From an uncultured Prevotellaceae bacterium (GTDB lineage: Bacteria > Bacteroidota > Bacteroidia > Bacteroidales > Muribaculaceae), in contig ONKD01000018.1 in NCBI GenBank assembly GCA_900318345.1, positions 33,109 through 97,108 on the forward strand: a stretch of 64,000 nucleotides of DNA, read 5' to 3'. The translations under genes and the position numbers were made by a program. Positions 37,514-41,129 of this stretch are shown here, piece by piece; within the stretch, counting starts at the first letter, position 1, and the number at the start of each line of letters is the position of its first letter. The notes below the pieces were generated by a model. It did no database searches. It was not told the origin of the DNA and saw only the letters and a list, made by a program, of their open reading frames with translations.

Positions 37514-38398
37514 ATGATGGGAAGAAAGAAACATGATAGGCCTCAAGGTTGGCAAAGGGTTATAGTGGTTACGCTTGGTTCGCTGCTGTCGATTGCCTTG
37601 TTCGCACTGCTGTGTTGGGGCGTGAATTGTTCCGACCTCAAGTATCAGAGGCGCTCGATGGGTTTCTTTGTCGGTCTAGCGTGGGTGGGGATGACGGTTT
37701 TCCTCTTGAGGAAACAGTTCAGTGCAATACCTAAAAAGGACAACTATCGTTTTGTAGCCTATTTCTTATTCGGTCTGAGCATTGGCTGCGGACTTTTGGG
37801 CATTGATCAATATGTCCACCGTTCCACCTCGTCCTATCTTCACTGCAAGAGTGTCACACGTGAGAGCATCCGTGATGCCGAGTATATCATGAGTGAGCAG
37901 GAAATCGATGTGATGGATAATTGCCGTGGCTATGATGTTAGTAGCGAGCGCAGAAGGCAAGGACGTGTAGCCTTAACAGCCCGCGTTGTTGCTCCGATCA
38001 GGGATAGCCATGGCGTTTATTTGGCCTTTGATGAGAGAGAGTATTATAAAACCTCGTGGAAAAGTCGCGATGAGATTGAAGAGGCCGATGACGATGCTAG
38101 GGCAAGACTGCGAGAAAAGGTTTCCGATCACCGCAATGACAACCAGTGCCATACCTATCGTCGCATCTTTGCCTACAATCACGCGAGCTATGACAAGTAT
38201 GTCAATGCTGTAGAAAACTCGTCACAGTACATGAACGACTCGCTCTATCGAGTAGAGTCCCTCCCACCCATCATCGAGGAAATTCATGATGTGGGACTTG
38301 GTGCCGATGCGCACCCCAATGTCCTGGTCACCGTCTTGTACCTGATCATCCATTTCTTCATCTGTATGGCCCTGCTCATGGCAGGCAGCAAAGACTAA
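37514..38398 (+). CDS. Membrane protein of unknown function
   Basis: About 294 residues. Three hydrophobic segments near the N-terminus (VIVVTLGSLLSIALFALLC, FFVGLAWVGMTVFLL, FVAYFLFGLSIGCGLLGI), a polar extracytoplasmic or cytoplasmic domain (about residues 115-265), and a C-terminal helix (VLVTVLYLIIHFFICMALL). No known domain recognised. Start at ATG 37514 or 37517; the frame upstream overlaps the ATPase gene. GC content is closer to core genes than the ATPase, so it may be native. Downstream lies the orphan copy of the rodA 3' end. Confidence 0.75.
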   Translation: MMGRKKHDRPQGWQRVIVVTLGSLLSIALFALLCWGVNCSDLKYQRRSMGFFVGLAWVGMTVFLLRKQFSAIPKKDNYRFVAYFLFGLSIGCGLLGIDQYVHRSTSSYLHCKSVTRESIRDAEYIMSEQEIDVMDNCRGYDVSSERRRQGRVALTARVVAPIRDSHGVYLAFDEREYYKTSWKSRDEIEEADDDARARLREKVSDHRNDNQCHTYRRIFAYNHASYDKYVNAVENSSQYMNDSLYRVESLPPIIEEIHDVGLGADAHPNVLVTVLYLIIHFFICMALLMAGSKD

Positions 38399-38420: not shown

Positions 38421-38469
38421 TTTACCAGGAGCCGTAGGAGTGCCGGTCGGCGTCGATGCGCAAGAGGAT
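38421..38469. repeat. Displaced copy of the rodA 3' end (left copy)
   Basis: Forty-nine bases identical, except one, to 39659-39707. On the minus strand it encodes ILLRIDADRHSYGSW and a stop, the C-terminus of RodA; the single difference (CGG versus CGT) is synonymous. A few further codons (GYTF) may also be homologous. Confidence 0.9.
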
Positions 38470-38565
38470 AAAAGTATAACCTCTAATAGATACTAATCGA
38501 TGCAGAATAGAATAAAAACGATACTAATAAGATATTTAAGTTCCATATTTTTCACTTATTATTGT

Positions 38566-38573
38566 TATCTTTG
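38566..38573 (+). promoter_or_regulatory. Predicted -7 box for the DUF1016 gene
   Basis: TATCTTTG followed by C, 30 bases before the ATG at 38604. A short direct repeat GATACTAAT occurs upstream at 38489 and 38520. Confidence 0.7.
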
Positions 38574-38603
38574 CACATTAAACGTTGTGTTTTGGATCTA
38601 GTT

Positions 38604-39632
38604 ATGAAGGATAACGAGTCATCAACCCCTTTAACAAGCGACATATTGCATGATGCCCGCAGAATCATTGAAACTGCAAGAAAAAATGCTATCCGCAGCG
38701 TGGATTTCAGTAGAGTTCAGATGTATTGGAATCTAGGGAAACGCATCTTTGAGGAAGAACAGCAAGGAAAAGAACGTGCTGACTATGGCGCTTATATCGT
38801 GAAGACTCTTGCTAAGGAGTTGGAGAAAGAATTTGGCAGCGGATTTGGTGTCAGACAATTGGAACAAAGTCGCCAGTTTTATCGTACCTATCCAATTGCG
38901 AACACACTGCGTTCGCAATTAAATTGGAGTCAATATCGGAGACTTATTCAGATTGATGATCCTGATAAGCGTGAGTATTATGAGTTGGAGTCCGTGAATA
39001 ACGCATGGACTGCTCGAGAGACAGAACGGCAGATCAATTCTATGCTTTATGAACGGCTGTTGCTCAGCAATGAGAAAGAATCAGTGCTGGCAGTTGCACG
39101 GCGTGAGCGTATTCCCGAAAGTCCAGAAGAAATCATAAAGGACCCGATGGTGCTGGAATTTCTTGGATTAAAACAGCAATCGTCATATTACGAGAAAGAT
39201 TTAGAAAGTGCTATCATATCCCATTTGGTGGACTTTCTACTCGAAATGGGCAAGGGCTTCTCCTTTGTTTCAAGGCAGAAACGCATTTTACTTGAAGATG
39301 ATGAGTTTTTCATTGATCTTGTCCTCTATAATCGACTGCTGCGGTGTTTTGTCATTGTTGAATTGAAAACAGGTAAACTCACTCATCAGGATCTAGGTCA
39401 ATTGCAGATGTATGTCAATTATTACGACCGAATTGAGAAAATGCCAGAAGAAAATGCCACTATTGGCATCCTATTGTGTACCAATAAGAATGACACAGCA
39501 GTAAAAATGGCATTACCTGAATCCAACAAAACAATTCTTGCAAGCCAATACCAACTGTATCTGCCAACAACCGAACAGCTTATCAATGAAGTCAACGAAG
39601 TGAAATTGTTGGCTCAACAGAAGAATAAATAG
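38604..39632 (+). CDS. DUF1016/YhcG-type PD-(D/E)xK nuclease domain protein
   Basis: 342 residues. N-terminal DUF1016_N region (about 1-170) with YWNLGKRIFEEEQ and RADYGAYIVKTLAKEL, then a YhcG PD-(D/E)xK domain (about 175-330) with FFIDLVLYNRLLRCF and VIVELKTGKLTHQDLG supplying the D...ExK catalytic pattern. Start at MKDNESSTPL (ATG 38604) behind the -7 box. The gene is AT-rich and inserted between two copies of the rodA 3' end, so it was probably acquired by insertion downstream of rodA. DUF1016 proteins are widespread, often multi-copy and solitary; their role is unresolved. Confidence 0.9.
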   Translation: MKDNESSTPLTSDILHDARRIIETARKNAIRSVDFSRVQMYWNLGKRIFEEEQQGKERADYGAYIVKTLAKELEKEFGSGFGVRQLEQSRQFYRTYPIANTLRSQLNWSQYRRLIQIDDPDKREYYELESVNNAWTARETERQINSMLYERLLLSNEKESVLAVARRERIPESPEEIIKDPMVLEFLGLKQQSSYYEKDLESAIISHLVDFLLEMGKGFSFVSRQKRILLEDDEFFIDLVLYNRLLRCFVIVELKTGKLTHQDLGQLQMYVNYYDRIEKMPEENATIGILLCTNKNDTAVKMALPESNKTILASQYQLYLPTTEQLINEVNEVKLLAQQKNK

Positions 39633-39658
39633 AGAGTTTTTGGCTGACGTAAGTGTCT

Positions 39659-39707
39659 TTTACCAGGAGCCGTAGGAGTGACGGTCGGCGTCGATGCGCA
39701 AGAGGAT
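39659..39707. repeat. rodA 3' end (right copy of the 49-bp direct repeat)
   Basis: Right-hand partner of 38421-38469; it contains the genuine rodA stop codon. The two copies are 1238 bases apart and bracket only the DUF1016 gene. Confidence 0.9.
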
Positions 39708-41129
39708 GAACAGCAGAATAGTAAAACCCCACAACGAGGAGCCGCCGTAACTGAAGAACGGTAGCGGGATGCCGATGACGGGGCACAAGCCGATGACCAT
39801 GCCGATGTTGATGGTGAGGTGGAAGATGAGGTAGGACGCGACACAGTAGGCATAAACACGCGCGAAGGTTGAGTGGTTGCGCTCGGCTAGGGTGATGATG
39901 CGCAAGATGAGTGCCAGGTACAGCAAGAGCACAGCCACGCTGCCCACAAAGCCCTTCTCCTCGCCGATGGTGCAGTAGATGAAGTCGGTGTGTTGCTCGG
40001 GGACATATTTGAGTTTGGTCTGCGTTCCGTTTAGGAAACCCTTGCCCATGATGCCGCCGCTGCCAATGGCGATTTTGCTCTGGTTGACGTTGTAGCCCGC
40101 GCCGCGGGGGTCATCGGCGATGCCCAGGGTGACCATGATGCGTTTTTGCTGATGCGGTTCCAGCACCTTGTTGAAGGCAATATCCACCATAAACATGAAC
40201 AGGACCGAGGACGCTGCAAAGCACACGGTGATAAGCACTTTCCTCAAGTCGTCATGCAACATGCCCCACAGCAGGTAGAGCAGCGACAGGAAAATGACCG
40301 GCAGGAAAAAGGCATAACCGTTGACGTGAACACCTGCCAGCGTCAGTCCGCCAGCCAACGCACCTGCCGCCAGATAGCCCAGCAGCACGTTGCGCCCCAA
40401 TATCCACGAGCGGCAATAGACCAGCAACATCCCCACGATGAGCGTCATGACCAGGATAAAGGCGATGACCATGCCCAGCGGGATACCCATGAACGTGGCG
40501 GCGGCAAACTTGAGCACCACCACAAAATAGACTACCGCCATCAGGGCGGCGAACAGCACGAAACCCGACATGCCCTCGCGGTAGAGGACAAAGATGAGGG
40601 CCGTGTAAACCAGTGCAGAGCCCGTCTCTTTTTCCAGAATGATGCACAGGATGGGCAACACGATGATGGCAATGGCGATGGCATAGTTGCGCCAGCCGTT
40701 GAGCGTGAAGCCGTATGTACTGAACAGTTTAGCCAGGGCCAATGCCGTCGCCGCCTTGGTAAACTCGGCGGGCTGCAGGCTCACGGGGCCAAACACCAGC
40801 CATGAGCGAGACCCCTTGATGTCGGGCGCGACAAAGATGGTGATTATCAGCAACAATATCATAAACCCATAGATGGGGTAGGCATAGGCTTCATAGATGC
40901 GCCTGTCAATAAGCAACAGTGAGAAGCCGATGAGGAAGGCCATGGCGGCCCACATGAACTGCTTGCCCGAGTACTCGCTCAGGTCAAACATGCTTGCCTT
41001 GTCATAGTCGTAGGTAGCGGCATAGATGCTCACCGCACCAGCCACGACCATGATCAGGTACAGGATGATGGTGAACCAGTCTACCGACCCTAATAGGTTA
41101 GTATTCTCATCTTCATTCCTCACTTCCAT
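39660..41129 (-). CDS. rodA: Rod shape-determining protein RodA (SEDS glycosyltransferase)
   Basis: SEDS-family peptidoglycan polymerase, 489 residues, about ten membrane helices. Characteristic motifs are present: KGSRSWLVFGP...PAEFTK near residue 120, and the C-terminal VIGIPLPFFSYGGSSLWG. It is longer than many RodA proteins because of an inserted middle membrane region (about residues 190-310). It works with the PBP2 encoded just upstream; the two genes overlap by 17 bases. It is the last gene of the mreBCD-mrdA-rodA operon, and its 3' end is duplicated at 38.4 kb. Confidence 0.95.
   Translation of the reverse strand: MEVRNEDENTNLLGSVDWFTIILYLIMVVAGAVSIYAATYDYDKASMFDLSEYSGKQFMWAAMAFLIGFSLLLIDRRIYEAYAYPIYGFMILLLIITIFVAPDIKGSRSWLVFGPVSLQPAEFTKAATALALAKLFSTYGFTLNGWRNYAIAIAIIVLPILCIILEKETGSALVYTALIFVLYREGMSGFVLFAALMAVVYFVVVLKFAAATFMGIPLGMVIAFILVMTLIVGMLLVYCRSWILGRNVLLGYLAAGALAGGLTLAGVHVNGYAFFLPVIFLSLLYLLWGMLHDDLRKVLITVCFAASSVLFMFMVDIAFNKVLEPHQQKRIMVTLGIADDPRGAGYNVNQSKIAIGSGGIMGKGFLNGTQTKLKYVPEQHTDFIYCTIGEEKGFVGSVAVLLLYLALILRIITLAERNHSTFARVYAYCVASYLIFHLTINIGMVIGLCPVIGIPLPFFSYGGSSLWGFTILLFILLRIDADRHSYGSW

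What the first reader, a model, noticed from the sequence alone, without database searches (positions are those of the whole stretch)
38421..39707. DUF1016 nuclease gene bracketed by a duplicated rodA 3' end
A 49-bp direct repeat with one synonymous difference encodes the RodA C-terminus at both 38421-38469 and 39659-39707. The single gene between them is AT-rich and unrelated. Elements that integrate at the 3' end of a gene often regenerate that end and leave a displaced partial copy. This may be a single-gene mobile unit without an integrase.
Basis: partly seen in the sequence, partly recalled or inferred. Interest (0 to 1): 0.7.

Follow-up and report, generated by a model that had tools for sequence, protein, structure and literature searches.

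The report
Lone nuclease gene inserted beside rodA
A single nuclease gene has been inserted at the end of a cell-wall gene while 49 letters of that gene were duplicated so that it stayed intact, and other small defence-type genes in related bacteria show the same mark, which points to a little-studied way in which single genes move without a visible transposase or integrase.

Summary
The last 49 bp of rodA (39659-39707) recur at 38421-38469 with one synonymous change, and only a DUF1016 (YhcG) nuclease gene lies between. The unit is an insertion: 0 of 29 same-genus relatives show a second rodA end in the DNA held, and in 4 of them the block beyond the remnant follows rodA directly. The two copies match each other (48/49) better than any relative's rodA end (37-47/49), so the repeat looks like a local target duplication. 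It is not a one-off. Under one rule, 17 of 214 DUF1016 genes sit tightly between direct repeats of 25-124 bp, against 2 of 892 other ORFs; three of the 17 are not clean duplications. RhuM (4 of 25), ORF6N (2 of 39), DUF4143 (3 of 30, one clean) and a nucleotidyltransferase-HEPN pair show it too, sometimes at the same gene end. The nuclease is therefore probably cargo, not motor. Closest known: 'insertion with long target duplication', described for restriction-modification genes. Against generality: no repeats at E. coli K-12 yhcG or at 8 plasmid and viral loci, and 197 of 214 DUF1016 genes lack them. Breaks and fill-in are inferred; the machinery is unknown.

The parts
38421..38469 (-). displaced remnant of the rodA 3' end (last codons, stop and 1 bp), joined to the flank seen in an empty site
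   Evidence: 48/49 to 39659-39707; its outer flank matches the rodA-to-neighbour junction of G037 (L024)
38470..39658 (+). inserted unit: DUF1016 gene with 134 bp before its ATG and 26 bp after its stop
   Evidence: 39.4% GC; no other listed ORF of 80 aa or more lies wholly inside
38566..38573 (+). TATCTTTG, a Bacteroidota-type -7 promoter element (motif recalled, not tested)
   Evidence: sequence
38604..39632 (+). DUF1016 / YhcG PD-(D/E)XK nuclease gene, 342 aa
   Evidence: PF06250 2.3e-57, PF17761 6.9e-42; D238 and K255 invariant in 19 diverse members
39659..39707 (-). second copy of the repeat, the 3' end of the intact rodA
39660..41129 (-). intact rodA (489 aa), the target gene
   Evidence: PF01098 2.7e-77
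37520..38398 (+). convergent neighbour whose block follows rodA in G025, G033, G037 and G041, which lack the unit

Best explanation
A small DNA piece holding little more than the DUF1016 gene (1,189 bp, with a likely promoter of its own) was inserted where rodA ends, and 49 bp of the target were duplicated. One copy completes rodA; the other is a dead remnant beside the old neighbour gene. Shown: the insertion, sites without it in relatives, copies closest to the host lineage's own sequence, no recombinase in the unit, and recurrence at other genes with other cargo. Inferred: the target was opened by breaks on its two strands tens of bases apart (or by breaks in two sister copies), the incoming piece was joined, and fill-in made the duplication. 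Because the same mark surrounds genes that are not nucleases, DUF1016 is more likely a favoured passenger than the engine. Gene-end duplications may be seen so often because only insertions that restore the target gene survive in tightly packed DNA.
For: Insertion: 0 of 29 relatives have a second rodA end in the DNA held (25 of them with 1.5 kb downstream, 4 with 0.26-1.2 kb), G000 has 47/48; none of the 29 gives a DUF1016 match there. In G025, G033, G037 and G041 the neighbour block follows rodA within about 120 bp; in G037 (L024) the junction reads straight through and matches the remnant side. Local origin: the copies match each other at 48/49, the closest relative's rodA end at 46-47/49 and the other 18 shown at 37-43/49. 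Recurrence: 13 of 140 genus DUF1016 genes against 1 of 653 control ORFs, and 4 of 74 cross-phylum against 1 of 239; pooled Fisher p 5e-11; the two control hits are a Fic-like gene (name recalled from its sequence) and an ORF6N-like gene. Different targets: GT 5' end 93/94, kdsB-like 5' end 77/86, hsdR-like 5' end 70/72, a probable outer-membrane protein (OMP) 3' end 44/44. L263 (mtaB-ORF6N-GT, no remnant) resembles the state before insertion in the GT case. Passenger role: a nucleotidyltransferase-HEPN pair at the same OMP end with a 43-bp duplication; RhuM, ORF6N and DUF4143.
Against: Most DUF1016 genes (197 of 214) show no such repeat. Two near-identical pairs at different sites (97-98% nt: L202/L207, L179/L182) gave no repeat in the three loci with enough flank. 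E. coli K-12 yhcG has none, and yhcG looks long settled in that species; 6 plasmid and 2 viral loci have none. Three of the 13 genus hits (L100, L166, L177) look like repeats that travel with a lineage, and L073/L195 and L171/L180 share sites, so independent clean sites number about eight. In comM-RhuM cases (L491, less clearly L498) the gene end next to the cargo differs from the remnant, which suggests an imported end there. No breaks, intermediates or donor junctions were seen. Nearly all the genomes used for the census are drafts. The strict rule was set after looking at the first scans.
Confidence: 0.6

Rival explanations
1. The unit is an integrase-less element that carries a gene 3' end and integrates by site-specific or homologous recombination at that end, with the recombinase supplied in trans, as many islands do at tRNA genes.
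For: A DUF4143 unit in L458 lies at a tRNA-Leu 3' end with a 39/40 repeat. In L491, and less clearly L498 (comM-RhuM), the two copies agree in a core and then diverge, as if the cargo brought its own comM end.
Against: Repeat lengths at one target vary (OMP 42, 43, 44 and 62 bp); 5' ends and intergenic DNA are duplicated too; copies within a genome match each other, not other species; no integrase lies in the unit.
Confidence: 0.15
2. DUF1016 drives its own movement: the nuclease cuts the target strands at separated points and its gene is copied or joined in, like a homing endonuclease without homology arms.
For: DUF1016 is enriched over other ORFs (17 of 214 against 2 of 892), and D238 and K255 of the nuclease core are invariant in 19 diverse members.
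Against: RhuM, ORF6N, DUF4143 and nucleotidyltransferase-HEPN units show the same mark; no common terminal motif was seen by eye among the units; L171 keeps a 48/48 repeat around a gene with an apparent N-terminal deletion.
Confidence: 0.12
3. Homology-facilitated illegitimate recombination: a donor with DUF1016 already beside rodA recombined inside rodA, and its far end was joined by chance inside the recipient's rodA end.
For: It predicts one duplicated gene end and a single new junction; the imported-looking ends at comM fit it.
Against: None of the 29 relatives has DUF1016 beside rodA in the DNA held; the copies are 48/49 identical although relatives' rodA ends differ more.
Confidence: 0.1
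4. An assembly error or a chance tandem duplication made the repeat.
For: The genome is a draft in 82 contigs.
Against: The locus lies inside a 97-kb contig; the same pattern recurs at unrelated genes in many genomes.
Confidence: 0.03

Closest known systems
Insertion with long target duplication of restriction-modification genes (Nobusato et al. 2000, not looked up; Furuta et al. 2010, not held; known here through passages of PMC3874152, PMC3031569, PMC1643837 and PMC3154945)
   Same: Genes unlinked to any known mobile element insert with long and variable target duplications, of the order of 100 bp (PMC3874152 passage).
   Different: Cargo here is a lone DUF1016 nuclease with no methyltransferase, and elsewhere RhuM, ORF6N, DUF4143 and nucleotidyltransferase-HEPN; hosts seen here are mainly Bacteroidota.
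Integrative elements at tRNA or protein gene 3' ends
   Same: A displaced copy of the gene's 3' end flanks the insert.
   Different: No integrase in the unit, repeat length varies at one target, 5' ends are used as well.
Insertion sequences and DNA transposons
   Same: Direct target duplication, and sites with one copy in relatives.
   Different: Duplications of tens of bases instead of a few (recalled), no transposase, no terminal motif seen by eye.
Free-standing homing endonuclease genes
   Same: A lone nuclease gene at a conserved host gene.
   Different: Homing uses homologous arms and leaves no target duplication (recalled); non-nuclease genes behave alike here.

Membership tests
Insertion with long target duplication | Site with one copy in relatives | tested here: met
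   0 of 29 relatives show a second copy in the DNA held; in four the neighbour block follows rodA
Insertion with long target duplication | Long, variable target duplication (order of 100 bp) | tested here: met
   49 bp here; 25-94 bp at other clean DUF1016 sites in the genus; 42-62 bp at one OMP target
Insertion with long target duplication | No linked transposase or integrase | tested here: met
   only the DUF1016 gene lies between the repeats
Insertion with long target duplication | Cargo is a restriction-modification gene (the published cases) | tested here: not met
   DUF1016 without a methyltransferase
DUF1016 / YhcG nuclease family | PF06250 and PF17761 over their cut-offs | tested here: met
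   193.7 and 143.2 bits against 32.5 and 32.8
DUF1016 / YhcG nuclease family | Active nuclease | not testable with these tools
   D238 and K255 invariant in 19 members; no assay
Transposon or insertion sequence | Transposase in the element | tested here: not met
Integrase-borne island at a gene 3' end | Integrase in the element | tested here: not met
Integrase-borne island at a gene 3' end | Fixed attachment core | tested here: inconclusive
   OMP duplications of 42, 43, 44 and 62 bp share their outer edge within about 1 bp of the stop codon but differ in length

The most novel reading that the evidence does not exclude
A general insertion pathway moves ORF-sized defence and toxin-antitoxin-type genes (DUF1016, RhuM, ORF6N, nucleotidyltransferase-HEPN, DUF4143) in Bacteroidota and beyond, without a cargo-encoded recombinase, making target duplications of about 25-105 bp and returning to the same gene ends. 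Solitary defence genes would then form their own class of mobile unit, with a dedicated machinery still to be found.
Probability: 0.3. Interest if true: 0.85.

Novelty: new variant of a known kind. Interest (0 to 1): 0.62.

Why it matters
Lone defence-type genes are scattered through bacterial genomes, often with no clear vehicle. A countable scar, a long direct repeat made from the target's own gene end, gives a way to recognise recent insertions, to rank them by age and to look for the enzyme responsible. It would extend a mechanism proposed for restriction-modification genes to a wider set of accessory genes.

Tried and rejected
Mobility by the nuclease alone: weakened when ORF6N, RhuM, DUF4143 and nucleotidyltransferase-HEPN units showed the same mark. 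Fic as comparison: 0 of 25 tested, 5 not testable, although one control hit was a Fic-like gene. RNA-mediated copying: considered because some units are little more than an ORF, but the window unit holds a promoter-like element upstream and L202/L207 share DNA upstream of the gene. Homogenisation of repeats within a genome against independent insertion at the OMP site: not settled; unequal lengths (42, 44, 62 bp) and different cargo in G026 favour repeated insertion, while the short 3' tails of G000 and G112 look alike. A mechanism that recognises stop or start codons: repeat edges lie within about 8 bp of a CDS end in the coding cases I checked by eye, but the gaps between genes are often short there, so survival of insertions that spare both genes may explain it. 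L100/L102, L166 and L177 were judged not clean target duplications. The PDB sequence search gave only a weak match to a GH92 mannosidase chain (E 0.0046), not useful.

How the census was made: the first scan used repeat score 20 or more and gave 16 of 138 DUF1016 genes against 7 of 626 control ORFs; the cross-phylum scan gave 8 of 73 against 3 of 251. The stricter rule (25 bp or longer, 90% identity, both copies within 150 bp of the ORF, not low complexity) was fixed after those scans, so its p-values are descriptive; L131, L155, L198 and L102 of the first scan fail it. The 145 DUF1016 ORFs (140 testable) come from 140 fetched loci and the window, which cover most of the matches that one search listed; at least three listed rows (G118:C23, G131:C51, G132:C37) were not fetched, and the list itself was cut off. 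Related genes are not independent counts. Family comparisons used at most 30 best-scoring loci per search, two searches for ORF6N. Not testable: 9 of 48 ORF6N, 5 of 30 RhuM, 5 of 30 Fic, 0 of 30 DUF4143. With the looser rule ORF6N gave 3 of 38.

Full report
What is there. The last 49 bp of rodA, including its stop codon and one further base, occur twice: at 39659-39707 as the end of the intact gene and at 38421-38469 as a fragment, with one synonymous difference. The 1,189 bp between the copies hold one gene on the other strand, DUF1016 at 38604-39632, with both Pfam domains far over their cut-offs. The unit is 39.4% GC against 55.7% for rodA. It carries a promoter-like TATCTTTG at 38566-38573 (motif recalled).

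It is an insertion. The window lies at G000:C46:33109-97108. Among 30 rodA loci examined, only that of G000 has a second copy of the rodA end in the DNA held downstream; 0 of 29 relatives do. Of these 29, 25 have about 1.5 kb downstream and L010, L025, L030 and L035 have 1.2, 1.2, 0.43 and 0.26 kb. None of the 29 gives a DUF1016 match in its locus. In G025, G033, G037 and G041 the block that lies beyond the remnant in the window follows rodA within about 120 bp; in G037 the junction reads straight through and matches the remnant side. In the other relatives the nucleotide comparison shows other DNA, or more distant parts of the region, after rodA. The two copies agree at 48 of 49 positions; the closest relative's rodA end (G019) matches them at 46 and 47 of 49 and the other 18 compared at 37-43. 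So the repeat was most likely made from the genome's own sequence or that of a near relative.

DUF1016 genes move. This genome has 8, and 79 of 101 same-genus genomes have at least one. The nearest relatives of the window's gene among those fetched (L083, L075, L089; 92, 86 and 85% aa identity) share downstream flanks with each other and thus one locus; the similarity of L083 and L075 to the window copy stops at the ORF.

The mark recurs. Of 140 testable DUF1016 genes of the genus, 13 sit tightly between direct repeats of at least 25 bp and 90% identity, against 1 of 653 other ORFs in the same loci; in 80 loci from many phyla the figures are 4 of 74 and 1 of 239. Pooled, 17 of 214 against 2 of 892, Fisher p 5e-11. 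The control hits are a Fic-like and an ORF6N-like gene. Three genus hits (L100, L166, L177) are doubtful, and two pairs share a site, leaving about eight independent clean sites. Targets include a glycosyltransferase 5' end (93/94), a TrmH-like gene 3' end (35/35) and intergenic DNA upstream of genes (46/48, 48/48, 49/49), and under the looser rule a kdsB-like 5' end (77/86). Across phyla they include an hsdR-like 5' end (70/72) and an hsdS-like 3' end (45/47). Names of target genes here and below are recalled from protein motifs unless a family search is cited.

Hotspots and other cargo. At the 3' end of one probable outer-membrane protein gene, DUF1016 units with duplications of 44, 42 and 62 bp occur in G000, G112 and G002 (the last split over two contigs), while in G026 the same end is duplicated over 43 bp around a nucleotidyltransferase-HEPN pair; the HEPN part is over the Pfam cut-off. 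In each of the four genomes the two copies match each other better than those of the other species. Between mtaB and a glycosyltransferase gene lie ORF6N in G009, G092, G123 and G132 and DUF1016 in G006, G123 and G124; L263 (G092: mtaB-ORF6N-GT) resembles the state before DUF1016 entered in G123, and the G006 and G124 units show no remnant. A comM-like 3' end is duplicated around RhuM in L491 and L498 and flanks an ORF6N gene in L209. By the strict rule RhuM gives 4 of 25, ORF6N 2 of 39, DUF4143 3 of 30 (one, L458, at a tRNA-Leu end; two look like repeated binding sites) and Fic 0 of 25. HEPN matches over the cut-off were found in 4 of 61 genomes, and one of those 4 loci is bracketed.

Results that pull the other way. 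Most DUF1016 genes lack the mark (197 of 214). E. coli K-12 yhcG has none; yhcG matches occur in 4,417 of 5,426 E. coli genomes, 3,310 of them over at least 80% of the gene, median one place each. Six plasmid and two viral loci have none. In L491, and less clearly L498, the gene end beside the cargo differs from the remnant, as if imported. Near-identical DUF1016 genes at different sites (L202/L207, L179/L182) showed no repeat in the three loci with enough flank.

How it most likely works. The anatomy fits insertion of a small piece with duplication of the target between two separated strand breaks; the breaks, the joining and the fill-in are inferred. Since cargo genes that are not nucleases show the same scar, DUF1016 is probably a passenger that persists because it is useful or selfish. 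Survival may filter what we see: in tightly packed genes only insertions that restore the target persist.

What is known. [quoted passage not shown] passages of PMC3031569, PMC1643837 and PMC3154945 describe such insertions too. Of the two original papers, Furuta et al. 2010 is not held and Nobusato et al. 2000 was not looked up. Ten papers of the library use the name DUF1016 (listing); of these I read passages of PMC4316617, which notes DUF1016 genes on conjugative elements. A joint search for DUF1016 with target duplication (one of its three terms was awkward) and one for ORF6N with mobile and duplication found no paper. So the process has a known relative; the cargo and the breadth are what look new, within that library.

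Noticed in passing
L389 (G017), just after the OMP gene: A degenerate second copy of the OMP 3' end (34/45) lies 76 bp after the first with no gene between, perhaps the trace of a lost unit.
   Followed up: partly
L392 (G026), also L416: A nucleotidyltransferase-HEPN pair lies between two identical 43-bp OMP gene ends; the same end holds DUF1016 in three other genomes.
   Followed up: yes
L491, L498, L209: A comM-like 3' end appears to be a hotspot for RhuM and ORF6N genes, with repeats of 34, 58 and 105 bp.
   Followed up: partly
L458, repeats at 782 and 2206 of the strand read: A DUF4143 gene is flanked by a 40-bp repeat (39/40) of a tRNA-Leu 3' end.
   Followed up: partly
L474 and L478: DUF4143 genes flanked by repeats of a motif like ATTCCAAAAAAGTTGCC in two genomes; possible binding sites rather than target duplications.
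   Followed up: no
L171: The DUF1016 gene appears to have an in-frame N-terminal deletion relative to L180, yet its flanking 48-bp repeat is perfect.
   Followed up: no
L166: Two DUF1016 genes in tandem with a 124-bp repeat; related sequence accompanies this lineage at other sites.
   Followed up: partly
L518 and L515: DUF1016 sits inside a type I restriction-modification operon on a Cetobacterium plasmid; a Hymenobacter plasmid has one near brxL.
   Followed up: no
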